IMG/VR virus record: IMGVR_UViG_3300049478_000004 | Location: 1 to 50,333 of that record | Reading direction: 5' to 3' (one strand) | DNA: 50,333 nucleotides | From: a virus | The notes under the pieces: generated by a model | The model's database searches: none | What the model saw: only the letters and a program-made list of their open reading frames with translations | Told to the model about the DNA's origin: nothing | In this document: positions 11,279-43,634 of the stretch, in pieces | How the letters are laid out: each line of letters begins with the position of its first letter | Numbering within the stretch: the stretch's first letter is position 1 | Position numbers and translations under genes: made by a program

Positions 11279-12253
11279 TTAGCTGATCGCCGTATTGAAG
11301 AACACACCGAGATCGGCAGCAACGAGCTTGTGATCGACTGCGAGTTCGCCCTCGATACGGTCGGATGAAAGTTGTTCCATGCGGAATCTCTTGATCCTCT
11401 GCCCATTGCCACCGGCTCCGAAATATCCTGTCCAAGCGAACGAATAACCGGCAGACGGTGTCAAAAGCGACGGTCTGGGGTTAGCGTAAACAAGCATCGC
11501 TCCCTTGATCTGGGCGATGAAGCTGATTGCGTCTGTGGCTCCCATGGCTGCAGTGTTCTCGACTGCGCCGATGGTCATTACTCTCTCCACGTCGAACAAT
11601 GATGCGAGGATGTCAGCCGTTACCACGCCACGCTGGGTGTATTTGATGCGGTCGATGATGTCGGCGTTGTTCTTCAGCGCATTGTAAACGAATGGATTGA
11701 GGACGAGCGTATTCGGCTTGTAACCGGTCGACTGCTGCATGGTAACGGCTGCGCCGGTGATGTCCTCGACCGGGGTGCTGTTGGCATCGTCCCAGCGGAG
11801 GAATTGGTTTGCGACCGGTGCGGCTGCGACGCCGGTCAGGTCTGTCCATACGCCTGTCTTGAAATAGTTTGCCACCCAATTTTTCTCACGACGGATCATG
11901 AGCTGCTGCGTAACCCACTGTGTGGCATCTCTGTCAAAGTTGATGGGTGCGTCAGCATTGGCTCTGATCTGATCGTCTACGTCTTTATGAACGGCATCGA
12001 CTCCGGCATAATATGTCGGTGTATTGTCGATGTTATATCCGGAACCGGCTGACTCCGTGCCCGGTGCTCTGAGCTGGGCCTCGCTACGAAACCAGTCTCC
12101 CTTTGGATATAGGAAATAACGATCGCTCTGTTTCTGAACAGGAACGGTCGGGAATACTTTGTCAGCGATGAAATTCACTGCTTCCTGCATGTACGCAATA
12201 GAAATATTGGTTAACGGTGCATTTACATGGACATCTCCTGCGGTTGGGTTCAT
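11279..12253 (-). CDS. Major capsid protein
   Basis: 324 residues. MNPTAGDVHVNAPLTNISIAYMQEA, the segment with KVFPTVPVQKQSDRYFLYPKG and the conserved NPFVYNALKNNADI region match the major capsid family found with Mu-like heads and many Firmicutes siphoviruses. It follows scaffold and decoration genes and precedes the connector. An N-terminal delta domain is not cut from a fused scaffold; the scaffold is separate (13014-13859). Confidence 0.88.
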   Translation of the reverse strand: MNPTAGDVHVNAPLTNISIAYMQEAVNFIADKVFPTVPVQKQSDRYFLYPKGDWFRSEAQLRAPGTESAGSGYNIDNTPTYYAGVDAVHKDVDDQIRANADAPINFDRDATQWVTQQLMIRREKNWVANYFKTGVWTDLTGVAAAPVANQFLRWDDANSTPVEDITGAAVTMQQSTGYKPNTLVLNPFVYNALKNNADIIDRIKYTQRGVVTADILASLFDVERVMTIGAVENTAAMGATDAISFIAQIKGAMLVYANPRPSLLTPSAGYSFAWTGYFGAGGNGQRIKRFRMEQLSSDRIEGELAVDHKLVAADLGVFFNTAIS

Positions 12254-12285: not shown

Positions 12286-13011
12286 TTAACCGAATACGAT
12301 CAGAAGATTCCCGGCTCCTTCGATGAAGGTCGTAACGCCTGAAATCTCAATGCTGATCGTATCAGTTGCGGTGAATGTATTGGCTGCGGTGATGGCGGTT
12401 GCGTCAACTACTGCCCCCAGCGGTGTGCAGTTTGCACTTGTCAGCGACAGAACGCCGCCTGTCAGGTTCGTGGCATTGATCTCCATGTTGATCGTTGCGG
12501 CTTTGGCTGCGGTTGTGACCGCTGTCGTAACGGCAAATGAAATCTTGGTAATCGAGCCAGCGAAGCCCGGCGTGTAGTTTGTCATATAGTCGCCGTTCGC
12601 CAATGCCGACAGGGTGAGAGGAATGGAAAGAATGGCCTTTGTGTTCATGCCGGTTGCGGTTCTCGTTACGAGGTACACGGTGCGGATTTCGTTTGTTGTT
12701 CCACTTTCCGCTGCTACTGCAAGAACACAATCGCTTCCGCCCGCTGTTACAAGTCGACCGCTGGCATCGGGTGTCAGGTTGGCTCCGGCTGTTACGGCTG
12801 CGCCATAAATTGCGAATGACTCCCCTACAACAGCGACGTTGGTGGCCTGTCCCGATGTCGGCTCATTCTGGATAATGCCGACCGAATTCTCCCCTGCGCC
12901 ACTCAAAACGGCATAGCCGGAAGAATTGATTTTGCATGCATAATATTGTTTAGCTGAAAGGTCAGCCCCTGCGACGAGGGTGCTGTTCCATACTGGTAAT
13001 TCACGTGCCAT
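12286..13011 (-). CDS. Capsid decoration protein (DUF2190-like N-terminus) with added C-terminal domain
   Basis: 241 residues. Residues 1-110 (VAGADLSAKQYYACKINSSG, VGIIQNEPTSGQATNVAVVG, G--LTPDASGRLVTAG) fit the RecA/radC-like DUF2190 decoration fold that binds capsid three-fold sites. Residues ~120-241 form a separate Thr/Ala-rich beta domain, probably displayed on the outside. Placed between scaffold and capsid genes. Confidence 0.8.
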   Translation of the reverse strand: MARELPVWNSTLVAGADLSAKQYYACKINSSGYAVLSGAGENSVGIIQNEPTSGQATNVAVVGESFAIYGAAVTAGANLTPDASGRLVTAGGSDCVLAVAAESGTTNEIRTVYLVTRTATGMNTKAILSIPLTLSALANGDYMTNYTPGFAGSITKISFAVTTAVTTAAKAATINMEINATNLTGGVLSLTSANCTPLGAVVDATAITAANTFTATDTISIEISGVTTFIEGAGNLLIVFG

Positions 13012-13013
13012 GA

Positions 13014-13859
13014 TTATTTCGCTCCTTTCTCGTTCAGATACTCGTCATAGAGATTCGGGTTTTCCTCGATGATCTTGGAAACCGCAGCCGCTTTTGTGAT
13101 CTTATCTTTGGTCGCCATGGCCTCTGCGGATTTCTCGATTTTCCCCCATGCGGTTGCGGGTTCGCCGCCTCCTGCGCTGCCGATCTCGGCAAACAGGCCG
13201 CCCTTGCTGAGTGCTACATCGGCGGCCTTGAGCACGGCCTCAACCTTTGCGTATTCGTCCGGGTTCGCCAGAGCTATTGCCTTGAGAACCGGCCCGAATT
13301 CGTCGGCTTTGATAGCGAGATTTTTATATGTGGCGGCTTTTTCGATGTACTCTTTGGTAACCTTCTCGTTTTCTGCCTTTTTAATCTGAGCTTCCAGCTC
13401 CTGTGCCTTTTTCGCCGTGTCCTCATGTTCCTTCCAGAGTGATTCCAAGGCGGGCTTGATATCCTCCGGCACACCATCGAGGTCGAGCGTTCCATCGGCC
13501 TTTGCCAGTGATTTCTTTTTCTTATCGCCGTATTCATAAGGCGTTGCATAACCGTAACCGGAAAGGTCTGCCAGCATCTTCATGACATTCTTTGGCATCT
13601 CATCCTTATATGCTGATAGCGTCTTGAGGACGCTCTTGCATGCTGCGGTGGCCTTGTCGGAAAGTTTGGCTTGCTTCATTACTTTGTCCACTTCCGGCTC
13701 GTTTTCGAGATCGGTTTCTAAGACCGATTTTAGGATTTCGTCGTAATTCATTTGATCTGTGCCTCCTTCGTCAGATTTTAATATTAAGAATTTCCGTTTA
13801 TTGGCGGCCTTGGGAACAAGGCTCACCTCGAACGTTTCAAGATTTGTGAGTTCGGCCAT
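13014..13859 (-). CDS. Scaffold-like protein starting with the tail end of an XkdF-type protease domain
   Basis: 281 residues. The first ~28 residues (ELTNLETFEVSLVPKAANKR) are the sequence that normally ends XkdF/S78-type prohead protease domains. They are followed by long, charged helices (residues ~145-175, KKAQELEAQIKKAENEK) and a disordered Lys/Ala-rich C-terminus, as in internal scaffolds. The start overlaps the 3' end of the giant protease gene by 23 bases, with AAGGAGG about nine bases upstream. It looks like re-initiation that splits one ancestral protease-scaffold polypeptide in two. Confidence 0.75.
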   Translation of the reverse strand: MAELTNLETFEVSLVPKAANKRKFLILKSDEGGTDQMNYDEILKSVLETDLENEPEVDKVMKQAKLSDKATAACKSVLKTLSAYKDEMPKNVMKMLADLSGYGYATPYEYGDKKKKSLAKADGTLDLDGVPEDIKPALESLWKEHEDTAKKAQELEAQIKKAENEKVTKEYIEKAATYKNLAIKADEFGPVLKAIALANPDEYAKVEAVLKAADVALSKGGLFAEIGSAGGGEPATAWGKIEKSAEAMATKDKITKAAAVSKIIEENPNLYDEYLNEKGAK

Positions 13860-16800
13860 CTCCTTTAGCCTCCTTCCTTATGCCATACCCGCCGACAGAG
13901 AATCCGGTATAATAACCGCTTTTTACGAGTTTCCAAAGGTCGGGGTCTGTTATTCTTACCGATATAACCCACGTTCCTTTCTTCACTTTCTGGTCATTTA
14001 ATGCGAAATCATCCGGGGCGATATAGCTTTCAACTAAATCTGCTTGTGCCTTTTTATGGTGCGAATCTCCAATGATGCGTGACTTCTCCATAAAGAAATG
14101 CGCTGCCATTTCGATTTCGTCCGGGGTCATATGGTCGCCCTGACTGTCGGTTGAGTTTGGTTCCAGCACGACTCCTGTTACAATCTGCTTTTCATCATCA
14201 GCCTTTAGGATGTCGGCATAGTATTGCTTTTCAATCTTGGCGGTCTGGACGTTTATTTTTTGCGGCTTTTCGCCGGGCAGTCCCCAGATTAACCATTTCT
14301 GCCCTTTTCCCTTTAACTCGCTTATTACATCAGCGAGGTCGTGGCTCTCTGCGTAAGGTGTTTGATCTGTCGGCTTATCTATAAGCCACACCCGGTTCTT
14401 GCCATCTCCAACCGGGGCGTATTCGAGAATGAATCGGCCTTTGAGCTTCTTACCGTCGATGAATAGCTCGATCATGTGCTCTCGCCACACACCGGTCTTA
14501 TATGTCCCGGTGTCCTCGGCCCAAAACTTGGCCCATGTGTTTGCCTCGCTGCCTACGCCTCCGGGCGGGCTCAAATATGGCTTTTTGGTTCCTACGTTCA
14601 GCCATTCGGCGGGCTGCTGCAGTTTGAATGTGCCCTGCAGATTGTCCTCCGGTGGGAGGTTTATAAGGCGATCTCCTCCGGGTTCCTTTCGGTTGTCTGC
14701 TGTGGTTCCAAGGAATACCGAAAATCCCCAGAGGCCGTCGTTTGATTGGAATCGAAGGTCACCGTGGAGGCTGTTGTCGGTGTTGAGGAGCTGCGCTTCG
14801 TTGAGGTCTTTTTCGTCCTCTGTGAGACCTCTCCAATGGTGCTGATATACGAACCGGCCCTCTCCGTCTGTCGGGGCCATGTCCTGCCAATTTTTAAGCC
14901 AGAAGTCCGTTGCGGCTGCGGCTCTGGTTCCGCCCTCCGCATCGTCCGCCTTTGTGACGTTGTCGTTTATGGCTCTTTGTATCTGTTTGAGTTTGCGGTT
15001 CAATTCGCCGCTGTCACCGAATCTCCGGATGGCGGTGGGGTGAGGCAGCACGAAATCGGCCTTTTCTCCCAGAGTTTTCTTCGCTGTTTGCCCTAAAGCG
15101 ACTATAATGTGGGGATTCGCTTTCGCCAACTCGTCATCGAGCCATTGTTTCCATTGTGCTATTTCCTCCGGATTCGGCTCTCGCACGTCGCCGGTTTCGT
15201 CGGTCAAGTAAAGCGGCACCACGTTTGTTATGAACACATCATTGCGGTTCAGGCCCAGCGGCTTTAAATATAAATCGTTGAATGTTGCGCCGGATGGCCC
15301 GACGAACGGCTCCCCTCTTGCGGCCTCGATCCTGCCGGGGCTGGCCCCTACAAATCCGATGGCTGCGTTGTCCGGGCCGCTGCTGGGTATGATGTCCGCC
15401 ACTTCCTTTTGGATCACCTTGCCTCGTTCCGCTATGTCGATGATCTGATTGCTTGAATATGGCTCTTTGCGTGTATCGTCTATGTCGAGGACGGTCGGCC
15501 CTAACCACGCCAGCGTTTTTGCTTCCTCATCTGGAATGAGTTCCAAAATCGAAACGGTGAGGATGTCGCCGGGTTTTGCGTCGATCTTTGTTGAGAAGGT
15601 CTTGCCTAGATCGATATATTCCTTGCCTTCGAATGTTTCCGTGTTGGCCCATTGCGGGCCCCCTGCGGATGGTGCTATGCCTCCGTAATAATTGAATATG
15701 CCCTTGTTTTTGGTTTCCTTTTTGTCCAATACAAGGACTTTTATTTCAACGATCCGCTTTAGCTTCGACCACTCGTTTGTGCCGCCCTTCTCATATGGGC
15801 CGGTCGGCGTTTTGGCAACGAGCCCCTCGCTTGCGTCCTGATTGAACGCCCATTTAACGGCTGTCTTGAGATCGTTTTCGTTGTTTACCCATCGAACCGG
15901 CGAGAGTTTGATGTCCCGGCTGCCGATGGTGTTGTATAGGCTTGTTAATGCATCCCGGCGTTCTGTGAATGGTTTTTGACTCAAATCCTCTTTGAAATAT
16001 GGGAGGTCAAAAAGCGTTAACACAACGGTTTCGTCCGGCTCAAACACCGGCTTATCCGCATTAAAACGCATCAGGTCAGGCCGGGATTCCCGCTTGCCGC
16101 CTCGTTCGATGCCGAGGTCTGCGTCCAGGATAAAGTCGCCATTTATTTTGGCGAGTTCTTCCTTGAGTTTCGGGAATTTGTCGATCATGTTGTCGCTGGG
16201 TTTCCCCTCAAACCAGAGCCGGATGTCTGCTCCGTCCTTCGTTACAATGCAACGGAAGCCGTTCCATTTCGGCTCGATATCGATCGGCCATTTATTGTCT
16301 ATCCATTTCAGGAGATCCGTCATGTCGAATGCTTCCGTGGTTCCTGCCATCTGCGGTTTCGGCGGAACGAATGCGATTGACGGTGATAGCTTTGCGATCT
16401 GCTCCTCTGCAGCTCCCGGTTTTTTCAGGACAGCATCGATATAATGCAGACCATTTGGCTCCTCCCGGTCGTTTACGCACACATTTTCAAAGCACGGCCT
16501 GTGTTCGATCAGCTCCGGGTTCGTCCAGAAGTCAAAACTGGCCTTATTAAAAAATGATTTGTGGCCCGGATGTGCAAAGGCTCCGTCTGTTTCCGTGCTG
16601 GGCACGGTGATTATGGCAAGGCCGCCCGGCATGAGGCTGCGGAATATTTCGGTCATTATGTTTTCTGTGTCCGGTAAATGCTCCAGAAAATGATTCGCCC
16701 TTATAACGGCAGCGGTGTCGCTCTGTATCGGGAGCCCATATCTCATATCCGTTACGATGTCGACTCCGTCGTAATTATCCGAATCGATCCCGATGAAACC

Positions 16801-17625
16801 GTCCGGCTTGCTGTTCCCGCATCCGAGGTCGTATCTGGGGCCCTCTGGGGCTTGTTCCTTGTACGTTTCCCAATCGGGCATACATGAGGCCCCTGTGTCT
16901 GCTTTTACGATTTCACGCTTGAATGTGGGCTTCCTACGCAGCACCAGATCATAGCAGGAAACATAATCGCCATGGCTGCCCTGCGGGTTCAAAATAAAAT
17001 GCAGGATGTCCTCTTTGTTCGGGTCGAGGATATTCCTTACCGGGAGCCACACATTATCGCTCTGGATGAGGTAATGCCCGCCCTCGTCCGATTCCGCCCT
17101 GAATAGAACGTCGATGTCGTTCGGGTTCTGTTTGTCCTTTGCTGCCGATCCTACGATCGAAACGAAATCACGCACCACCATGGTTTCCTTTGGCAGCGCA
17201 TAAAAATTCTTTACAATGTCATATTTTTTGGTGGGCTTGAAGTTCTCCACGGCCCGGTAAAGGTCGCCGGTCTGATCTATATCAAATTTGCGGTTCTTCA
17301 TTTCCTCAATAACCCAGATAGCAGCATTTACAAAGTTTTCGATGGCCTGATTCTTTTCCTTGGCTCCGCCATACCACTGATTGAGCCTATGCCATGCGGA
17401 TAATATTTCCGTATCGGGCGCATCGGTCAGAACGTCGGGCCGCATCTCCTCCAGTGTGAGCTTTTCAATCTGGGCGGCTTGTGCTTGCTGCTGTGTTCGT
17501 TTGTTGGCTCTGGCCTTGCCTCCCGATTGTGGAATCGCCGCTCGTTGAATCTCTGTAAACAGCCATTCCGGGAGGAATTCCTTTGCTTTATCAAGCATAG
17601 CCTCCAAATACTCAGACGATGGCAT
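13837..17625 (-). CDS. Giant capsid protease fused to nucleotidyltransferase, methyltransferase, DNA ligase, uracil-DNA glycosylase and LigD-like phosphoesterase domains
   Basis: 1262 residues, ATG at 17625 with GGAGGG upstream. Domains in order: nucleotidyltransferase-like ~100-240 (G159-S160, D170, D172 in NDIDVLF); SAM methyltransferase-like ~260-400 (DLGCGNSKPDGFIGID at 266-281, HFLEHLP); ATP-dependent DNA ligase ~440-715 (catalytic Lys453 in KWNGFR, EGLVAK at 600-605, later OB part); family 4/5 uracil-DNA glycosylase ~755-890 (GEPFVG at 771-776, HPTAIRRF at 862-869); LigD 3'-phosphoesterase-like ~920-1090 (His929/930, then H954-D956-R958 in LHGDLRF, IDGKKLKGRF at 1056-1065); XkdF protease ~1140-1250 (VTGVVLEPNSTDSQGDHMT). 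It occupies the prohead protease place between minor head protein and scaffold. The protease part could deliver the repair enzymes into the capsid; that is inference. Confidence 0.83.
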   Translation of the reverse strand: MPSSEYLEAMLDKAKEFLPEWLFTEIQRAAIPQSGGKARANKRTQQQAQAAQIEKLTLEEMRPDVLTDAPDTEILSAWHRLNQWYGGAKEKNQAIENFVNAAIWVIEEMKNRKFDIDQTGDLYRAVENFKPTKKYDIVKNFYALPKETMVVRDFVSIVGSAAKDKQNPNDIDVLFRAESDEGGHYLIQSDNVWLPVRNILDPNKEDILHFILNPQGSHGDYVSCYDLVLRRKPTFKREIVKADTGASCMPDWETYKEQAPEGPRYDLGCGNSKPDGFIGIDSDNYDGVDIVTDMRYGLPIQSDTAAVIRANHFLEHLPDTENIMTEIFRSLMPGGLAIITVPSTETDGAFAHPGHKSFFNKASFDFWTNPELIEHRPCFENVCVNDREEPNGLHYIDAVLKKPGAAEEQIAKLSPSIAFVPPKPQMAGTTEAFDMTDLLKWIDNKWPIDIEPKWNGFRCIVTKDGADIRLWFEGKPSDNMIDKFPKLKEELAKINGDFILDADLGIERGGKRESRPDLMRFNADKPVFEPDETVVLTLFDLPYFKEDLSQKPFTERRDALTSLYNTIGSRDIKLSPVRWVNNENDLKTAVKWAFNQDASEGLVAKTPTGPYEKGGTNEWSKLKRIVEIKVLVLDKKETKNKGIFNYYGGIAPSAGGPQWANTETFEGKEYIDLGKTFSTKIDAKPGDILTVSILELIPDEEAKTLAWLGPTVLDIDDTRKEPYSSNQIIDIAERGKVIQKEVADIIPSSGPDNAAIGFVGASPGRIEAARGEPFVGPSGATFNDLYLKPLGLNRNDVFITNVVPLYLTDETGDVREPNPEEIAQWKQWLDDELAKANPHIIVALGQTAKKTLGEKADFVLPHPTAIRRFGDSGELNRKLKQIQRAINDNVTKADDAEGGTRAAAATDFWLKNWQDMAPTDGEGRFVYQHHWRGLTEDEKDLNEAQLLNTDNSLHGDLRFQSNDGLWGFSVFLGTTADNRKEPGGDRLINLPPEDNLQGTFKLQQPAEWLNVGTKKPYLSPPGGVGSEANTWAKFWAEDTGTYKTGVWREHMIELFIDGKKLKGRFILEYAPVGDGKNRVWLIDKPTDQTPYAESHDLADVISELKGKGQKWLIWGLPGEKPQKINVQTAKIEKQYYADILKADDEKQIVTGVVLEPNSTDSQGDHMTPDEIEMAAHFFMEKSRIIGDSHHKKAQADLVESYIAPDDFALNDQKVKKGTWVISVRITDPDLWKLVKSGYYTGFSVGGYGIRKEAKGDGRTHKS

Positions 17626-17639
17626 AGGTGCTTCCCTCC

Positions 17640-17663
17640 TTTACTCTTTTACTCCTTTACTCC
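17640..17663 (-). repeat. Octamer array, 3 units
   Basis: TTTACTCT, TTTACTCC, TTTACTCC (plus strand). It supplies the TAA stop of the minor head gene (17657-17659) and the leader of the giant protease gene, which carries its own GGAGGG closer to the ATG. Confidence 0.9.
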
Positions 17664-18586
17664 TTGAACCGAACGCCAAGCGTACAACGGCATGAAGGGT
17701 GCAATGGTGGAGTATCTATGTTTCCGGCTGCTGTGCTGAAAGGCTGGCCCAGCGTGGTAGTTACGCCCGCCATTTCCTTGCACTTGTCACAAAGTCGGTC
17801 ATCCGGTGTTAAAATCCAATATATTTCGTATGTGCTCGGCGGCAGGATTCCTTGATCGGCACCTTGCTGCAGCATCTCGTTAAATCCTTGATTCGAGGCC
17901 CGCATGAGTTCCGTCCGTGCTATATTCTCGGCCCTATATTGAAGCAGCCGTTTTGAATATTTATCCGCCATTGTCTGGGCTCGTTCGTATTTCTTGCCGC
18001 TTGAGATCAGCCGGTCACGATAGTTGGTAACGGCTCCCGCTTGCCGGGTCGTGAGTCCGATAAGTGATTTCAAATGTTCGGCTGTCTTGTCCGCTCCATA
18101 ACCAGCTTCCGCCGCCGATCGGACTGCCTCCCGAAGTGCGAGGACGGTTTCATTCGAGACTTCCGTTACTAACTCCGCTGTTCTGGCCTTTATCCATGAA
18201 AGGCTCCGGGGTGATCCGGTATCGAACACAACGTCCCTTTGCTCCATCGGAAGCGTGACAATCATTTCCTGTCCGCTCCGGTTCAGCGTGTCCTCCATCA
18301 ATGGTTCTGCTGCCGTGAGTTCGGCCTTGAATGCATCCCATGGCACGGCGTTTTCGATCTTGACTGAATCGTTGTTATATATCCCCTGCAGCATTTGCTT
18401 GATGTCAGCCTCGCTGCGGGTCTTATCGGCTGCCCTGATCACCATATCCGTCATGGCTTCGGTGTTCTTATCGGCTGCCGCTTGTATGATTTTCCATGCC
18501 CTGCTGTTCGGCGTTTTATCTGCGATCGGGCCGCCTGTGTGCAGCTCCGGTGGTTGGATATCTTTTTGTTTAAAGATCCACGGCAT
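17657..18586 (-). CDS. Minor head / head morphogenesis protein (Mu gpF-like)
   Basis: 309 residues. The C-terminal part has the family signature: ENIARTELMRASNQG, then DDRLCDKCKEMAG and PPLHPSCRCTLGV, with three cysteines and a histidine that probably bind zinc. The helical N-terminal half resembles the portal-binding part of SPP1 gp7/Mu gpF proteins. It lies downstream of the portal, separated by three small accessory genes. Involved in head assembly and DNA ejection in relatives. Confidence 0.9.
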   Translation of the reverse strand: MPWIFKQKDIQPPELHTGGPIADKTPNSRAWKIIQAAADKNTEAMTDMVIRAADKTRSEADIKQMLQGIYNNDSVKIENAVPWDAFKAELTAAEPLMEDTLNRSGQEMIVTLPMEQRDVVFDTGSPRSLSWIKARTAELVTEVSNETVLALREAVRSAAEAGYGADKTAEHLKSLIGLTTRQAGAVTNYRDRLISSGKKYERAQTMADKYSKRLLQYRAENIARTELMRASNQGFNEMLQQGADQGILPPSTYEIYWILTPDDRLCDKCKEMAGVTTTLGQPFSTAAGNIDTPPLHPSCRCTLGVRFKE

Positions 18587-19329: not shown

Positions 19330-20598
19330 TTATTTATTAATTGGCAAATTGGCGAGCTTCAGGAGGTACTTCTCCAGCTCCTCGTTCGGGAACAGCGGCA
19401 TACCGGCCCCGGAAAGATCACTCAGATATTTGCCAAGTTCTTCTAACGGAATCGATTCAATATCGCCCGGCACGATCGCCGGTAATGCTTCGATGCTGAA
19501 TGAGTTCAGTTCAAAAAGGCGGGGCACGGCATATCTGTTGAACACGTCGGCTATGCTGTTTAACCATGCCCCGATCGCCACGGCGAATAATTCCGTCTTA
19601 CTGCTTGAAAGTGCGAAACTGCCGACGTTCTTTGTGCCTAAAAGGATAAAATCTGCCAGAACCGTCATTGCGATCCGGCTGTCGTATCTCTGGACAATGG
19701 TGTCGGTGTCAAACTGGCGACGGCCTCCGGTTGATAGCAGGGTAAGGTCATAAATTTTATTATTGTTCTCGTCATATGAAAGCGGGAACACAATTCCTTC
19801 CTGCTCATCCCGGCGAATATTGCGGACGATCTTCTTTATCTCCGCTAATACGGCCTTGTCCCCTGCGCTGGCTGTACTATCCAGAAGCTCCGCTGGCACC
19901 CAAGCCACCGGCAGACCGGCGAGGTCACGCTCGATGCCGATGCCCTCTATGCTCTCGATATTTTTCTTGTAATACCATGGGCGATACGCATTACGCAGAA
20001 CGCTCCGGCCCTCCGGGTTTCCCTTGCGGGTTACTGTCCGGAACAGCAGGGCCTTTTCCATAGGTATGCGGACGAGCTCATATGTCGGCGGCCCCATCTG
20101 CCACATGGCGATAATGTCGCCCGCTTCGTCAAACTCCCACTCGTTGAGCGTTTCCTGCGCTCTGATCGGTATCTTGCGCCAGCCGATGCGTCCGTCATTG
20201 AATCGGCTGTGTGTTTTCGGGTCTGCGGTCGGGCCTAATCTCCGTTTATAAACGAGTTCGTGATAGCTCCATCCGAACACCAACATGCTCAAAATTTCGC
20301 AGATCAGTTCGCTCCACGGCTGGTTCATGTCGTTCATGCAACTATCAAGAAAATCTGCCGCCTCTGTGTCCTTGTCTGAATCGCTCACTGGTTCGACTTG
20401 CCATAAAACTTGCCGAATTAGCATTTCTATTGCAAAAAGGATAGAGCCCACGGTTGGGTCGTTATCCCGCATTTCCTTATATGTCCGGATTCCTTTTAGC
20501 CCTTGGAGTTGTGTGAGCTGCTCCTCGTAAACATAACCAGCCGCCCGATCGAGGCCGGTGTTGCCTAGCTCCATGTACATTCTTCCGTTAATTGCCAA
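19330..20598 (-). CDS. Portal protein (DUF935/Mu gp29-like)
   Basis: 422 residues between large terminase and the head genes. The opening (EEQLTQLQGLKGIRTYKEMRDND) and the segment MLVFGWSYHELVYKRRLG match DUF935-type portals, in which 'fGwsyhEivyk' is characteristic. The length fits a dodecameric portal subunit. The C-terminal ~60 residues are probably the tunnel and crown. Confidence 0.88.
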   Translation of the reverse strand: MAINGRMYMELGNTGLDRAAGYVYEEQLTQLQGLKGIRTYKEMRDNDPTVGSILFAIEMLIRQVLWQVEPVSDSDKDTEAADFLDSCMNDMNQPWSELICEILSMLVFGWSYHELVYKRRLGPTADPKTHSRFNDGRIGWRKIPIRAQETLNEWEFDEAGDIIAMWQMGPPTYELVRIPMEKALLFRTVTRKGNPEGRSVLRNAYRPWYYKKNIESIEGIGIERDLAGLPVAWVPAELLDSTASAGDKAVLAEIKKIVRNIRRDEQEGIVFPLSYDENNNKIYDLTLLSTGGRRQFDTDTIVQRYDSRIAMTVLADFILLGTKNVGSFALSSSKTELFAVAIGAWLNSIADVFNRYAVPRLFELNSFSIEALPAIVPGDIESIPLEELGKYLSDLSGAGMPLFPNEELEKYLLKLANLPINK

Positions 20599-20620: not shown

Positions 20621-21928
20621 TTAGTCCCATGATGATGTGCCTGTGATGCCTGTCGGTTTCACCCTTTTTGCGGGTTGTTTCCCTAACAGCAGGGCGGTCA
20701 ATGCATGAACCATTGCGTCTAATCTGTCCGGGCTGTCCTCTGCTCCGGGCACCCATGTTGTCATCTGATCCTCAAGAACCGCAATGCTGCCGATATGGTG
20801 AACACGGCCCTGCTCGTAAAGCGAGGAGATCGGCTCCGCTCTGGTTTGCTTGCCCCGGCTTGCGTGGATCAACTTGACCGGAACATTCGGGTCTACTGTG
20901 TGAATGGTAAAAGAGACCATGTCTCCGCCCTGATTGCTCTCCGCCACGACGTAATCGGCATCGTGATCGTAATAGGCATCGACCACTCGCTTGGCCCATG
21001 CTGCGGGCTTTAGTTGCCCGGAATAATCCGCCAGAATAAAACCTTCTATTGCTTTTGAACCGGCGACAATGATTCCGGTTTCGTCGGAGTCCTCGTTCGT
21101 GGAAACTGCCGGGTCTACTCCGATAACGATTCGGTCAAGTTCCGGCTGCTCGTTCACCCTGTGTAAATCCAGAATTGCCCTTGTCCAAAGGGCTCCCGGC
21201 GTATCGTCGAGAATTTCTGCGTTGAGTTCCTGTCTGCCGAGGCGTGTTCCCTCATACTTTGAAATGATGGTACTTAAAAATATTTTGGATAGATTCTCCG
21301 CATTGTCGTATGTGCTGCCCCTTGTGATCACCGTTCCCGGCGTTTTCATTATTTCCTTGAGGATTTTAATGGGCTTTGGTGTGGTAGTGACTACGCATTG
21401 CGGATTATCCCCTAAACGGAGGCCCAGCATCAGCATGTCGTATGCCTCCGGATATCTCCAAGAACACAGTTCGTCGGCCCATGCGGTGTCATTGTTCGGG
21501 CCTCTCAATCGCTCCGGTTCGTCCGCCGAGTAAACTGTCGCCGTTGCGCCGGTGTAGAAGGTCAGCCGCCGCTTCGATGGCTCGTATATGGGCCGGTATG
21601 ATTTTGGGAACACGTTGAGGATTCCGCTTTCGCCCTCGACCATGATGTCCCTTCCGTCTGCCGCTGTCGGCGCGACAAGGGCGATTCTCGCTGCCTGTTT
21701 GGTTTCCACCCGGTATCTTATCCATTCGGCCCCGGTGCGGGTCTTACCGAAGCCACGGCCCGCTAATATGAGCCAGACGATCCACGGCATGTCCGGAGGC
21801 TTTTGTTCTGGCCTCGCTATCCCGATTTTTCCCATCCAGTCATAATTCAGGGCCATGAGTTCTTTATCTTCCATGAGCATTACGCCATTCCGGATCATGG
21901 TCTTATTGCGCCTCTGCTCCTTTGTCAT
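20621..21928 (-). CDS. terL: Terminase large subunit
   Basis: 435 residues. Walker A is GRGFGKTRTGAEW (residues 57-69). A Walker-B-like region (NNDTAWADELCSW) and the coupling motif follow. The nuclease domain contains VIGVDPAVSTNEDSDETG with the acidic metal-binding residues of an RNase H-like fold. It translocates DNA into the prohead and cuts the concatemer. Its start overlaps the stop of the small subunit by four bases. Confidence 0.95.
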   Translation of the reverse strand: MTKEQRRNKTMIRNGVMLMEDKELMALNYDWMGKIGIARPEQKPPDMPWIVWLILAGRGFGKTRTGAEWIRYRVETKQAARIALVAPTAADGRDIMVEGESGILNVFPKSYRPIYEPSKRRLTFYTGATATVYSADEPERLRGPNNDTAWADELCSWRYPEAYDMLMLGLRLGDNPQCVVTTTPKPIKILKEIMKTPGTVITRGSTYDNAENLSKIFLSTIISKYEGTRLGRQELNAEILDDTPGALWTRAILDLHRVNEQPELDRIVIGVDPAVSTNEDSDETGIIVAGSKAIEGFILADYSGQLKPAAWAKRVVDAYYDHDADYVVAESNQGGDMVSFTIHTVDPNVPVKLIHASRGKQTRAEPISSLYEQGRVHHIGSIAVLEDQMTTWVPGAEDSPDRLDAMVHALTALLLGKQPAKRVKPTGITGTSSWD

Positions 21929-22443
21929 AATTCAATCCCTCCATCTGGGCCTATGGGTTCCAGATCGTCCGGGATACCTTGCATTTTTTCAAGTCGACGG
22001 ATTAATTTCTCTCTGGCCTTTTCGATATCTTCCGTGGTTATGCTGCCGATTTGCTCGTTTGCATTTTGGGTTTCCTGAGTTCCGTTGTTTCTCCATTTCT
22101 TATACCGGCCCGACATGAGCATCTTATATGCAAAGTTTGGATCATCCTTCGCTGCTGCATAGCATAACTGCGCGTATCGGATTTCACTCTCTACGTCAGC
22201 CCTCTCAACTGCGTTGCAAAAATCAACGTAAGGAACCTCTGACTGTTTGATTTTGCTGGATAAATTGGCTTCCAGACGCTGAATCTCTCTTTTGCCTCTT
22301 GTGATCCATCTCCACAAAGTTGTCCTGTCTACGCCATTAAAAGCCGCCGCTGTTTCGAGGAAGTTCCCGAAACGGAGGTAGTGGATTATATTCTCTTGAA
22401 GCTCCGGTGTGAGCTTTGGCGGTCTGCCTCTCTGGTCAGCCAT
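21925..22443 (-). CDS. terS: Terminase small subunit
   Basis: 172 residues beginning MADQRGRPPKLTPELQENII, with an HTH (ETAAAFNGVDRTTLWRWIT) that binds the packaging site, a central oligomerisation region (YAQLCYAAAKDDPNFAYKML, SGRYKKWRN) and an acidic tail. This matches small terminases of Firmicutes phages. It is coupled to the large subunit by an ATGA overlap. Confidence 0.88.
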   Translation of the reverse strand: MADQRGRPPKLTPELQENIIHYLRFGNFLETAAAFNGVDRTTLWRWITRGKREIQRLEANLSSKIKQSEVPYVDFCNAVERADVESEIRYAQLCYAAAKDDPNFAYKMLMSGRYKKWRNNGTQETQNANEQIGSITTEDIEKAREKLIRRLEKMQGIPDDLEPIGPDGGIEL

Positions 22444-23820
22444 TTACACCACTTTCCATTCTTTTACGTCACTGATGTGTCGCTCCTTCCCATTTCTTAT
22501 AAGCCGGACTCCAACGTCGGAATCTCTGAATTTTAGGTATCGTTTGACGATAACGTCCGTATATACCGGCGAGAGCTCCATGCCGTAACAAATGCGGCCT
22601 AACTGCTCCGCTGCGATCAGCGTTGATCCGCTTCCGAGGAAAGGGTCGAACACAATGTTGTCCGATCGGCTGCTGTTCTCCATGTAATGCCTCAAAAGCG
22701 GCAGCGGCTTCATGGTCGGATGTTCTGTGCTGCGGGTTGGCTTGTCATCTCTAGTGACGGTTGTTTGTAATTGGTTTAATAGGTCTTTTATATAGGCCCG
22801 GAGCTCATCCTTCTTCATTGCGTCGATGTCCGGCAGCCCCTCATCATAAACGGTTGATTTGTCCCTGAATCCGAACCAGCAGTGGGCCTCCCCTTCCTTC
22901 CAGCCATATAAGATCGGTTCGTGCTGCCAGTGATAATCTTGGCGGCCCATTACGATCGTGTTTTTAACCCACACAAGGACTTGCTTGAGGGTGAGGCCCG
23001 CCTCTGCTGTTGCGGTTCGGAAAATAAGGCCCTTCGTGTCTGCATGAAATATATAAAACGGCCCGCCCGCTTTGAGAACGCTCCGGGCGTTCGTTAACGC
23101 CGATAAAATAAAATCGTGGAATTGCTGGTCGTTCATGTCATCGTTGTCGATGGTCAGCGCATCGGCTGTCTTTCCAACATAATCCACGTTATAAGGCGGG
23201 TCGGTCAGCAGCATGTCCGCCGTTTTACTGTCCAATAAAGCGGACACATCACGGCTGCTTGTTGCATCGCCGCAGATCACACGGTGCTTACCTAAACACC
23301 ATATGTCGCCGGTCTTGCTCACCGGCTCCTCTATTTTGGCGGCCTCCTCCTCCGGGTTGAAGTCCTCCTCCTCTTGGATGGGCCGGTCGCCGTATTCTGC
23401 GATTAAGTCCTCTATTTCGTCCGGATTGAAACCGGTTAGTTCCATGTCAAATTCGCCGGTGTCGAGGTCGAGCAATATCTGGGCCAGCTTTTTATAATCC
23501 CATTGGGCCCACTCTCCGGCCCGATTATCCGCTATGGAGAACGCTTCCGCTTTCGCCTCACTGTCAAATTCAACGTATATGACCGGCACTTTTTCGATGC
23601 CCTTGAGTTCCGCCGCCTTGATGCGGGTATGGCCCGCCCGGACGGTTCCGTCTGGGGTTGCGATTACCGGGTTAATGAATCCGTGCTCCTCGATCAGTCC
23701 TGAGAGGCGTTCCGCTGCGTCATCGTTGTTTCTGGGATTCTTCGTCCAGCCTTTTAGCTTAGAAATGGGAACATATTCAATCTTCAATTTGCGGTCTTGC
23801 ACTCTGGCACTTCCCCTCAT
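22444..23820 (-). CDS. ParB/Srx-domain fused DNA N4/N6 methyltransferase (beta class)
   Basis: 458 residues. Residues 12-150 are a ParB/sulfiredoxin-like domain (YVPISKLKGWTKNPRNND, GFINPVIATPDG, VRAGHTRIKAA). Residues 170-440 are a beta-class methyltransferase with catalytic DPPY (207-210) before the SAM-binding FDPFLGSGST (391-400). The target base cannot be told, but it may protect the genome or mark packaging sites. It is the first gene of the late operon, one base from the small terminase. The ATG at 23820 has a weak site; the GTG six codons in, with AGGGG upstream, is an alternative start. Confidence 0.9.
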   Translation of the reverse strand: MRGSARVQDRKLKIEYVPISKLKGWTKNPRNNDDAAERLSGLIEEHGFINPVIATPDGTVRAGHTRIKAAELKGIEKVPVIYVEFDSEAKAEAFSIADNRAGEWAQWDYKKLAQILLDLDTGEFDMELTGFNPDEIEDLIAEYGDRPIQEEEDFNPEEEAAKIEEPVSKTGDIWCLGKHRVICGDATSSRDVSALLDSKTADMLLTDPPYNVDYVGKTADALTIDNDDMNDQQFHDFILSALTNARSVLKAGGPFYIFHADTKGLIFRTATAEAGLTLKQVLVWVKNTIVMGRQDYHWQHEPILYGWKEGEAHCWFGFRDKSTVYDEGLPDIDAMKKDELRAYIKDLLNQLQTTVTRDDKPTRSTEHPTMKPLPLLRHYMENSSRSDNIVFDPFLGSGSTLIAAEQLGRICYGMELSPVYTDVIVKRYLKFRDSDVGVRLIRNGKERHISDVKEWKVV

Positions 23821-37866: not shown

Positions 37867-38181
37867 TTATTCCTGTATAAAAGTTTCAATTATTGCAGCC
37901 TTGTTTTTTTCATATAGATCATCAATGGCAATCTTCAAAAGGTCGGATAACGCCTTACCCTTATAAACTCGCCTGATGTCATCTAGCCTCTGAATGGTAT
38001 CTTCTTGAAGCATATAACTTCGTTTGAATTTCTGAGGTTTTTTATATTTCTTTTTTCTCGCCTGTTCTAATGGAATGCGCCGCTCATCTCTGTTCGCCAT
38101 GGCTGAAAGGCCCGGCAGAAGTTCTCCCCCTGCTCCCAGCTCGTTCTGGATTTCAGCAACCGTCTTTTTTCTATTGGCCAT
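37867..38181 (-). CDS. RHH partner of ParA (ParB-like small partition protein)
   Basis: 104 residues. A basic, disordered N-terminus contains ARKKKYKKPQKFKR; then YMLQEDTIQRLDDIRRVYKG and LSDLLKIAIDDLYEK make an RHH. Small RHH proteins coupled to ParA serve as centromere binders in many Firmicutes plasmids. Its start overlaps the ParA stop by 11 bases. Confidence 0.75.
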   Translation of the reverse strand: MANRKKTVAEIQNELGAGGELLPGLSAMANRDERRIPLEQARKKKYKKPQKFKRSYMLQEDTIQRLDDIRRVYKGKALSDLLKIAIDDLYEKNKAAIIETFIQE

Positions 38182-38935
38182 CGGTCAACATCTCCTTCGC
38201 CAGCTCGATGTACTGAATCGCCGCTTTTGCTTTGTGATCGTAAAACACAAGGGGCGTTTTGTTTCGCTGGGACTCTTTGATTTTTTCGTTGCTGTTTATT
38301 ATGGTATTGAATACCAGGGGGCCGTACTTCTCCCCAAGGTCGGCCCGGCATAAGTCTGCGTCTTTCGATCGGGCGGGCACCCTTGTTAATAGAATCCCGG
38401 CGATGTCGATCTTGCTTATGTCTTGCACCAGTTCGATCGTGTTTGCCAGCCATTCTACTCCCTGCAGCGAAAATGACGCCGGTTCAACCGGGATGATAAT
38501 ACTGTTTGCGGCACACAGGCCGTTCAGATTCAAAACGCCAAGCGTGGGGCTGGTATCGATGAATATAAAATCGTATTCGTCGGAAAGCTGCGCCATGCGT
38601 ATGGCCTTTTTGAGAATGCTCTCCCTGCTTATTATTCCGCTGATCTGCAGTTCCGCATTCGCCAGAACGATGCTTGAGGGCACTATGTCGAGCCCTTCCC
38701 ACTTCGTTGTGATTATTGCGTCCCGCATTGATATTCCCTCGACCAGAACATTATACGATGTAACTGGCATGTTCGTCGGAATATCGAGGCCCGCTGTCAG
38801 GTGCGCTTGTGGATCGAGGTCTATTACCAGACACCGCCTCTTAAACAGCAGCATGGCTGCTGCCAGATTGATTGTCGTGGTAGTCTTTGCCACACCACCT
38901 TTTTGATTTGAGATTGTAATTACTTTCATTTCCAT
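38171..38935 (-). CDS. parA: ParA/Soj partition ATPase
   Basis: 254 residues. Deviant Walker A KGGVAKTTTTINLAAAM (signature lysine in KGGVAKTT), Walker B VIDLDPQAHLT, and IDTSPTLGVLNLN. It partitions low-copy replicons, so the element probably replicates as a plasmid in the lysogen. Promoter: 39312-39340. Confidence 0.93.
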   Translation of the reverse strand: MEMKVITISNQKGGVAKTTTTINLAAAMLLFKRRCLVIDLDPQAHLTAGLDIPTNMPVTSYNVLVEGISMRDAIITTKWEGLDIVPSSIVLANAELQISGIISRESILKKAIRMAQLSDEYDFIFIDTSPTLGVLNLNGLCAANSIIIPVEPASFSLQGVEWLANTIELVQDISKIDIAGILLTRVPARSKDADLCRADLGEKYGPLVFNTIINSNEKIKESQRNKTPLVFYDHKAKAAIQYIELAKEMLTDGQ

Positions 38936-42701: not shown

Positions 42702-42749
42702 CACATGGTTCAGGGCAAACAAAAAATAAACTTTGTGGGGTATACGAAA

Positions 42750-43634
42750 ATGGCTAACGATATGATAAAGAATCAAAACTTCGGTGTTGAAATCGAATTT
42801 AACGGCATCACTCGTTCGGACGCTTGTGAAGCGATCGCGGTTGCGATGAATTGGTCGGCCCCGGAATTTACGCTCTCTTATTACACCTATACTACTAAAG
42901 ACGAGCAGGGCCGTTCGTGGAAGGTCATGCGGGATGCCTCAGTCAATGGCTCCGATGATTGCAAATGCGAACTGGTCACGCCGATCCTGAATTACTCCGA
43001 TATCGAAACGCTTCAGGCCGTCGTTCGTGTGATCCGCAAAGCGGGCGGCAAGGTCGACAACTCCACTGGCCTCCATATCCATGTTGACAAGGCCAATCAT
43101 ACAGCTGCTACGCTTCGTAACCTCATCAATATCGTTGCTTCAAAGGAAGCCCTTATTAATAAAGCATTCGCGGTCAAGGGCGAAAGACTCACCCGCTGGT
43201 GCCGTCCGGTCGATAAAACACTTGTCGAGAAGGTCAATAGCCAGAAGCCGAAAACAATTCAGGCCCTCGGAGAACTCTGGTATGCCGGTTATAATGACCG
43301 ATACACGCATTACTCATCCAGCCGTTACCATGGCTTAAACCTCCACAATGTGTGGTACGCTCATACGGTCGAATTCCGGTATTTCAATTCCACGCTTCAC
43401 GCTGGCAAGGTCAAGGCTTACATTCAGTTTTGTCTCGCTGTATCGGCACAGGCCATCGTGCAAAAATCAGCCAGCCCGATTCAAACGGTCAGCTCCAATG
43501 AGAAATATACCTTTAGAACTTGGATGCTCCGGCTGGGCCTCATTGGTAAGGAATTCGAAACTTGCCGCCTCCATCTCCTCGCCAATCTCGACGGCGATAT
43601 CGCATTCCATGATGGAAGACCGAGAGCTTGCTAA
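42750..43634 (+). CDS. Amidoligase (Amidoligase_2, glutamine-synthetase-like fold)
   Basis: 294 residues. NFGVEIEFNGITRSDACEAI opens with the family's metal-binding 'GvEiEf'. WKVMRDASVNG-CELVTPIL (KxxxDxS and E-VTP) and STGLHIHVDKANHTA (GLHIHV) are the further conserved catalytic stretches, and the ending has HTVEFRYFNSTL. Such COOH-NH2 ligases use ATP to join amino acids to carboxylates and are often encoded with AIG2/GGCT proteins. Substrate unknown. Confidence 0.9.
   Translation: MANDMIKNQNFGVEIEFNGITRSDACEAIAVAMNWSAPEFTLSYYTYTTKDEQGRSWKVMRDASVNGSDDCKCELVTPILNYSDIETLQAVVRVIRKAGGKVDNSTGLHIHVDKANHTAATLRNLINIVASKEALINKAFAVKGERLTRWCRPVDKTLVEKVNSQKPKTIQALGELWYAGYNDRYTHYSSSRYHGLNLHNVWYAHTVEFRYFNSTLHAGKVKAYIQFCLAVSAQAIVQKSASPIQTVSSNEKYTFRTWMLRLGLIGKEFETCRLHLLANLDGDIAFHDGRPRAC

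What the first reader, a model, noticed from the sequence alone, without database searches (positions are those of the whole stretch)
13837..17625. Prohead protease fused to a complete set of DNA-repair domains
One 1262-residue ORF in the prohead-protease position joins a nucleotidyltransferase-like domain, a SAM methyltransferase, an ATP-dependent ligase (Lys453), a family 4/5 uracil-DNA glycosylase, a LigD-like 3'-phosphoesterase (H954-D956-R958) and an XkdF protease. The key residues of each enzyme are visible. If the protease part is built into the procapsid like other XkdF proteins, the particle may carry repair enzymes that mend or mark the genome at packaging or after ejection. The LigD-like ligase plus phosphoesterase hints at end-joining of broken DNA, useful to a phage of dormant, spore-forming hosts.
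Basis: partly seen in the sequence, partly recalled or inferred. Interest (0 to 1): 0.92.

Follow-up and report, generated by a model that had tools for sequence, protein, structure and literature searches.

The report
Phage head protease carrying repair enzymes
A phage gene makes one 1262-residue protein that joins the enzyme that matures the virus shell to DNA-joining and DNA-end-trimming enzymes, and dozens of related phages carry the same build with swappable parts, which suggests these viruses carry a small DNA repair and counter-defence kit in their heads.

Summary
On the minus strand (17625..13837) one 1262-aa ORF joins a helical N-terminus, a Pol-beta-type nucleotidyltransferase (NTase), a SAM methyltransferase, an ATP-dependent ligase, a UDG-superfamily domain, a LigD-type 3'-phosphoesterase (PE) and an XkdF prohead protease. 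It is not an assembly artefact: a PE profile pulled in 79 IMG/VR contigs, whose uncut ORFs mostly keep the order NTase-ligase-PE-XkdF while UDG and methyltransferase come and go. A structure model gives a LigD PE fold (Z 13.4) followed by a T4 gp21 protease fold (Z 8.8). The gene sits between MuF/portal and scaffold/capsid. In 17 of 17 records with XkdF, the fusion holds the only copy. Every domain is under purifying selection. Some relatives add Acb1 (anti-CBASS), Dam-type methylase, MBL-fold or 2H domains. Best reading: an undescribed 'polyvalent protein' with the protease at its C-terminus, loaded into the procapsid and probably injected, a mostly Ku-free, LigD-like end-healing kit. Packaging, cleavage and activity are inferred.

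The parts
13837..17625 (-). Fusion gene, 1262 aa, NTase-MTase-ligase-UDG-PE-XkdF
   Evidence: same order in L032 and L033
17254..17625 (-). N-terminal helical region, residues 1-124
   Evidence: model with pLDDT mostly over 90; no significant family
16894..17253 (-). Pol-beta-type minimal nucleotidyltransferase, residues 125-244; G159 S160 D170 D172 D226
   Evidence: G159, D170, D172 in 67/67, S160 91%, D226 88%; NTP_transf_2 in 6 and DNA_pol_B_palm in 2 of 53 relatives, weak; fold search inconclusive
16393..16881 (-). SAM methyltransferase, residues 249-411
   Evidence: PF13489 4.5e-6, PF08241 1.7e-4; DLGCG motif conserved; optional in the family
15454..16353 (-). ATP-dependent DNA ligase adenylation domain plus C-terminal part (OB-like by inference), residues 425-724; K453, E600, K621
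   Evidence: PF01068 7.6e-16, NHEJ ligase TIGR02779 1.1e-17 below its cut-off, residues
14941..15438 (-). Uracil-DNA-glycosylase superfamily domain without Fe-S cysteines, residues 730-895; N801, H862
   Evidence: PF03167 1.5e-22, UDG chains of the PDB 1e-12, residues
14251..14928 (-). LigD-type 3'-phosphoesterase domain, residues 900-1125; Q928 H930 H954 D956 R958; H84 and Y88 equivalents are Q1004 and W1008
13861..14238 (-). XkdF prohead protease (Peptidase_S78_2), residues 1130-1255; D1160, H1189, S1243
   Evidence: PF14550 4e-33; T4 gp21 fold Z 8.8; residues 98-100%; only XkdF copy in the record
13014..13859 (-). Next gene, 281 aa, overlaps the fusion by 23 bases; a homologue follows the fusion in about 50 relatives
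12286..13011 (-). Head scaffolding protein
   Evidence: phrog_673 1.1e-14
11279..12253 (-). Major capsid protein
   Evidence: phrog_1005 5.9e-88
17657..18586 (-). MuF-like head morphogenesis protein
   Evidence: PF04233 8e-11, phrog_3517 9e-42
19330..20598 (-). Portal protein
   Evidence: PF06074 1e-32, phrog_113 7e-81
20621..21928 (-). Terminase large subunit
   Evidence: PF03237 1e-24, PF17289 7e-17
21925..22443 (-). Terminase small subunit
   Evidence: phrog_4102 1e-18

Best explanation
The gene encodes a modular polyvalent protein whose C-terminal module is the phage's own XkdF-type prohead protease. Shown: all domains lie in one conserved reading frame, the protease is the phage's only XkdF copy, the gene sits in the head module, and every domain is under purifying selection. 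Inferred: the protease module brings the protein into the procapsid, as other prohead proteases do. It cuts scaffold and capsid proteins and probably its own linkers. The freed NTase, ligase, phosphoesterase and UDG parts stay in the head and enter the next cell with the DNA. There they heal and seal broken or nicked genome ends (3'-end cleaning, nucleotide transfer, ligation), a LigD-like kit that usually works without its own Ku and guards the incoming genome against damage and host nucleases. The swappable slots (UDG, methyltransferase, Dam, MBL-fold, 2H, Acb1) adapt the kit to local damage and defence systems.
For: 79 IMG/VR contigs with the PE domain; domain order and modular variation; the MuF - fusion - 281-aa homologue - scaffold - capsid order in most loci with enough flank, about 50 with the 281-aa homologue; XkdF is C-terminal, within 21 residues of the end in all but two ORFs; one XkdF copy per record in 17 of 17 records that have one; LigD PE fold and T4 gp21 fold; conserved catalytic residues; dN/dS about 0.03-0.2 per domain between L032 and L033. 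XkdF-less NTase-ligase-PE proteins also sit in head clusters near portal or MuF. Polyvalent proteins are encoded with late virion genes, and assemblin-like peptidases stand at their C-termini (PMC5512222). Anti-CBASS Acb1 occurs in the same polypeptide in L046.
Against: No virion proteome, cleavage site or enzyme assay exists for any member. Many prohead proteases act in numerous copies, and a 140-kDa fusion in each would be bulky; no conserved internal start that would make a free protease was found. PE and UDG have substitutions at residues important in their best-studied relatives (PMC8656161). Ku is absent from all 17 XkdF-bearing records tested, the window included. The NTase fold search was inconclusive.
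Confidence: 0.52

Rival explanations
1. Same polypeptide, but the enzymes act in the producing cell: the ligase, PE and UDG mend the concatemer or the packaging substrate while the procapsid is being filled, and are cut off and lost before the particle is finished.
Against: Anti-CBASS Acb1, MBL-fold and 2H modules in the same polypeptide are more useful at entry; a repair enzyme for replication would more naturally sit with the replication genes at 29-31 kb, not fused to a capsid protease.
Confidence: 0.25
2. Mainly a counter-defence protein: the ligase, PE and NTase reseal cuts made by restriction, CRISPR or nicking defence enzymes, or process signalling nucleotides, and general DNA-damage repair is secondary.
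For: Acb1 in L046 (PF23474 2e-23; PDB Acb1 2e-8), 2H/LigT domain in L139, MBL-fold domains in L034 and L100, Dam-type methylases in L041, L107 and L075.
Against: The commonest core is ligase plus LigD-type PE, an end-healing pair, and UDG is present in about half; no defence target is known.
Confidence: 0.15
3. The enzyme folds are kept for binding, not catalysis: they act as an internal scaffold or DNA-binding core tethered to the protease.
For: UDG lacks Fe-S cysteines and the motif-1 Glu; PE lacks His84 and Tyr88; some members lack ligase, UDG or methyltransferase altogether.
Against: NTase DxD, ligase K/E/K and the PE metal-binding His-His-Asp are nearly invariant with low dN/dS; intein-type inserts sit in NTase, ligase and PE regions of L148, a habit of inteins in active enzymes.
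Confidence: 0.07
4. The fusion is a sequencing or assembly artefact, or a decayed read-through.
For: A few relatives (L039, L052, L069, L141) are split in frame.
Against: Intact long ORFs with the same order in dozens of independent contigs and purifying selection in every domain.
Confidence: 0.01

Closest known systems
Polyvalent proteins of phages and conjugative elements (Iyer et al. 2017, PMC5512222)
   Same: Many disparate enzyme domains in one long polypeptide, encoded with late virion genes; a prohead-type (assemblin-like) peptidase at the C-terminus; Pol-beta NTase, methylase and 2H domains are in their catalogue.
   Different: DNA ligase, LigD-type phosphoesterase and UDG are not mentioned as polyvalent domains in the main text (supplements not read). 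Here the NTase-ligase-PE trio is the usual core and the protease is the phage's only XkdF copy.
ANMV-1 virus AJP62006 'ATP-dependent DNA ligase' (KP703175)
   Same: Collinear NTase, ligase, PE; BLASTP 2e-4, 8e-17 and 2e-7 for the three parts.
   Different: No methyltransferase, UDG or XkdF; that virus has a separate gene annotated as prohead protease. Virus of an uncultured marine archaeon.
Bacterial LigD (NHEJ)
   Same: ATP ligase and 3'-phosphoesterase of LigD type in one protein, with a third nucleotide-adding domain.
   Different: Pol-beta-type NTase in place of the LigD primase-type polymerase; PE has Q1004 and W1008 in place of His84 and Tyr88; no Ku in the window; fused to a capsid protease.
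Stand-alone XkdF / Peptidase_S78_2 prohead proteases (Lactococcus phage 28201, Rhizobium phage RHph_Y1_11, Pseudomonas phage Boevelstad)
   Same: Same protease family in the same gene slot between portal/MuF and capsid.
   Different: Those proteins are about 150-350 aa, without the fused enzymes; no INPHARED record has the fusion.
Phage P1 DdrB and N4 virion RNA polymerase (as described in PMC5512222)
   Same: Large enzyme-bearing proteins that go into the phage head, DdrB after proteolytic processing.
   Different: They carry zincin-like peptidases, not the head-maturation protease, and other enzyme domains.

Membership tests
Polyvalent protein (Iyer et al. 2017) | Multiple domains with disparate biochemical activities in one polypeptide | tested here: met
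   six enzyme or protease domains in one ORF
Polyvalent protein (Iyer et al. 2017) | Encoded with late, virion genes | tested here: met
   terminase, portal, MuF, fusion, scaffold, capsid order
Polyvalent protein (Iyer et al. 2017) | Carried in the particle and delivered at infection | not testable with these tools
   needs virion proteomics
XkdF prohead protease (Peptidase_S78_2) | Sequence over the family cut-off and prohead-protease fold | tested here: met
   114.5 bits against cut-off 24; T4 gp21 Z 8.8, 2.4 A over 107
XkdF prohead protease (Peptidase_S78_2) | Catalytic His and Ser | tested here: met
   H1189 98%, S1243 100% in 65 relatives; the catalytic roles are by analogy
LigD 3'-phosphoesterase superfamily | Beta-barrel PE fold | tested here: met
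   3p43 Z 13.4, 2.1 A over 123 of 124
LigD 3'-phosphoesterase superfamily | Mn-binding His42, His48, Asp50 and Arg52 | tested here: met
   H930, H954, D956, R958
LigD 3'-phosphoesterase superfamily | Phosphate-site His84 and Tyr88 | tested here: not met
   aligned with Q1004 and W1008; mutants at these sites are inactive in P. aeruginosa LigD (PMC8656161). Fold membership stands, full active-site identity does not
Bacterial LigD / NHEJ system | LigD polymerase domain of primase type | tested here: not met
   the N-terminal enzyme bears a Pol-beta GS..DxD signature instead; no primase-type hit
Bacterial LigD / NHEJ system | Ku partner | tested here: not met
   no Ku in the window record; 1 of 20 records has one, an XkdF-less relative; records may be fragments and the host's Ku could serve
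Family 4 uracil-DNA glycosylase | UDG superfamily sequence signature | tested here: met
   PF03167 1.5e-22; TIGR00758 4.5e-21 but below its curated cut-off
Family 4 uracil-DNA glycosylase | Four Fe-S cysteines and motif-1 Glu (GEAPG) | tested here: not met
   0-1 Cys in 37 of 39 domains; GASPG in motif 1; the family 4 motif is from general knowledge
ATP-dependent DNA ligase | Motif I lysine and motifs III, IV, V | tested here: met
   K453, D540, E600, K621; Asn455 in place of Asp, as in 35 of 66 relatives
Pol-beta superfamily nucleotidyltransferase | GS and DxD plus third acidic residue | tested here: met
   G159, S160, D170, D172, D226
Pol-beta superfamily nucleotidyltransferase | NTase fold | tested here: inconclusive
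   model of moderate confidence, no match

The most novel reading that the evidence does not exclude
A widespread, undescribed lineage of tailed phages carries, inside its heads, a self-cleaving protease polyprotein that is a virion-borne DNA break-repair machine (NTase, LigD-type phosphoesterase, ligase) with interchangeable counter-defence cassettes, repairing the phage genome on entry largely without a phage Ku.
Probability: 0.4. Interest if true: 0.9.

Novelty: new variant of a known kind. Interest (0 to 1): 0.8.

Why it matters
It would be a case in which the head-maturation protease itself is the carrier for DNA end-repair enzymes, linking capsid assembly to genome repair in one polypeptide across dozens of phages. 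It makes testable the open question of whether phages bring repair enzymes in the particle, and it shows a modular polypeptide into which anti-CBASS and other counter-defence domains are swapped, useful as a search bait for new ones.

Tried and rejected
Assembly-fusion artefact: rejected by independent contigs. Known 'DNA methyltransferase/prohead protease' fusions in Rhizobium, Pseudomonas and Lactococcus phages: the regions fetched show short stand-alone XkdF genes; the label probably stems from the name of PHROG 1530. Closest terminase relatives: none of 17 such virus records has a PF01068 ligase, so the terminase does not track the fusion. A free protease from an internal start: no conserved site. 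A KA[DE] motif at domain boundaries as self-cleavage site: enriched, but the main site is simply the conserved start of the XkdF domain, so left as a weak hint. NTase fold search: no significant match, only helical-bundle look-alikes, uninformative. T4 endonuclease V-like (Pyr_excise) N-terminus: weak hits in 4 of 53 relatives, best 6e-4, not confirmed in ten members scanned one by one. First scans with the single protein found no relative. Host assignment was not resolved: a strong PE match in 1 of 249 genomes of the Bacillota MAG's phylum and in 2 of 251 of the Dehalococcoides MAG's phylum.

Full report
What is there. The ORF lies on the minus strand of the window, 17625 to 13837, 1262 aa, with an AGGAGG site before the ATG. 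Pfam finds XkdF protease (4e-33), UDG (1.5e-22), ATP ligase (7.6e-16) and a methyltransferase (4.5e-6). The phosphoesterase part is invisible to Pfam in this protein alone (E 0.019) but 15 of 20 relatives hit LigD_N and the profile's only PDB hits are LigD PE chains. A structure model of residues 895-1262 (mean pLDDT 89) matches the archaeal LigD PE 3p43 with Z 13.4, 2.1 A over 123 residues, and its C-terminal part matches the T4 prohead protease gp21 with Z 8.8, 2.4 A over 107 residues. The NTase rests on its GS-x9-DxD signature and on weak hits of relatives to NTP_transf_2 and the Pol-beta palm; its fold search was inconclusive.

The family. A single-sequence scan found nothing, but the archaeal ANMV-1 virus 'ligase' has a collinear NTase-ligase-PE, and an alignment of the two PE regions brought in 39, then 79, IMG/VR contigs, plus one Bacillota and one Dehalococcoides MAG contig. 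Because the PE was the bait, its presence in all is by construction. Among ORFs not cut by contig ends the orders are NT-lig-UDG-PE-Xk 14, NT-lig-PE 11, NT-MT-lig-UDG-PE-Xk 10 (the window's, window included), NT-lig-PE-Xk 8, NT-MT-lig-PE-Xk 7 and rarer ones. On a tree of 44 PE+XkdF members the methyltransferase changes at least 8 times, UDG at least 4 and ligase at least 4. Ligase identity to the window falls to 35-40% in L034, L038 and L040 while PE stays at 63-67%, a sign of module swapping. Inserted modules in relatives: Acb1 anti-CBASS in L046, Dam-type methylase in L041, L107 and L075, MBL-fold domains in L034 and L100, a 2H/LigT domain in L139 and LAGLIDADG (intein-type) inserts in L147 and L148.

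Gene context. About 50 loci have a homologue of the 281-aa downstream gene next to the fusion, followed where flank allows by scaffold and capsid homologues, and about 39 have a MuF homologue upstream (my count from that table). XkdF-less relatives L140 and L075 also lie near portal, MuF or capsid genes. In 17 of 17 records with XkdF the fusion holds the only copy, so these phages must use this protein as their XkdF protease, unless they have an unrelated one. Ku was found in none of those, and in 1 of 20 records tested: the virus of L147, which has NT-lig-PE without XkdF.

Function by residue. NTase G159, S160, D170, D172, D226; ligase K453, D540, E600, K621; PE H930, H954, D956, R958; XkdF D1160, H1189, S1243 are nearly invariant. 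Between L032 and L033 dN/dS is about 0.03-0.2 in each domain (computed from its dN and dS). Departures: UDG domains hold 0-1 Cys in 37 of 39 and have GASPG in place of the family 4 motif-1 Glu; PE has Q1004 and W1008 where LigD has His84 and Tyr88, whose mutants are inactive in P. aeruginosa LigD (PMC8656161). Asn455 in ligase motif I is as common as Asp (35 to 28). So ligase and NTase activity are likely, PE activity plausible but altered, UDG activity uncertain. The specificity of the methyltransferase is unknown.

How it would work. The protease module gives entry to the procapsid by analogy with T4 gp21 and other prohead proteases (established knowledge). In polyvalent proteins with a C-terminal assemblin-like peptidase the same role was proposed (PMC5512222), and P1 DdrB is processed before it is packaged (same source). 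The rest (self-cleavage in the linkers, retention in the head, injection, end healing by PE and NTase followed by ligation) is inference. The rival in which the enzymes act during packaging in the producing cell fits the genomic data almost as well; the counter-defence modules of relatives tilt me to action at entry.

Known or new. The frame is the polyvalent protein of Iyer et al. 2017 (PMC5512222): many disparate enzyme domains, encoded with late virion genes, likely injected; assemblin-like peptidase always at the C-terminus. Their text does not mention DNA ligase, UDG or LigD PE domains (supplement not read), and my searches for XkdF with ligase, UDG or LigD found no description (only open-licence papers are held). 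No record among 50,697 phages has the fusion; the best single match covers 22% of it. I therefore file it as a new variant of a known kind.

Noticed in passing
L046:3772-4548: Acb1 anti-CBASS domain (PF23474 2e-23; PDB Acb1 2e-8) inside the fusion protein of a relative.
   Followed up: partly
L147 and L148, segments within the fusion ORFs: LAGLIDADG-type inserts (intein-like) within the NTase, ligase or PE regions; the L148 ORF is 2592 aa.
   Followed up: partly
L165 (G533:C1:26061-26534, virus of L147): Ku gene in a phage that also encodes NTase-ligase-PE without XkdF: a possible phage NHEJ pair.
   Followed up: no
window 38171-38935 and 22444-23820: ParA-like protein, and a ParB-N plus N6/N4 DNA-methylase fusion next to the terminase; suggestive of plasmid-like maintenance or of DNA marking before packaging.
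   Followed up: no
window 42705-43634: Amidoligase enzyme (phrog_2443 2.5e-96) among the phage's plus-strand genes.
   Followed up: no
public phage records (e.g. L150, L151) and phrog_1530: Stand-alone XkdF proteases of about 150-350 aa are annotated 'DNA methyltransferase' in several phages, apparently through a PHROG name.
   Followed up: partly
L156 (Dehalococcoides MAG contig): A second PE-bearing ORF of 693 aa in the same MAG as L075.
   Followed up: no
window protein residues 240, 891, 1140: A KA[DE] motif recurs at three domain boundaries; could be protease cleavage sites or chance plus the conserved XkdF start.
   Followed up: partly
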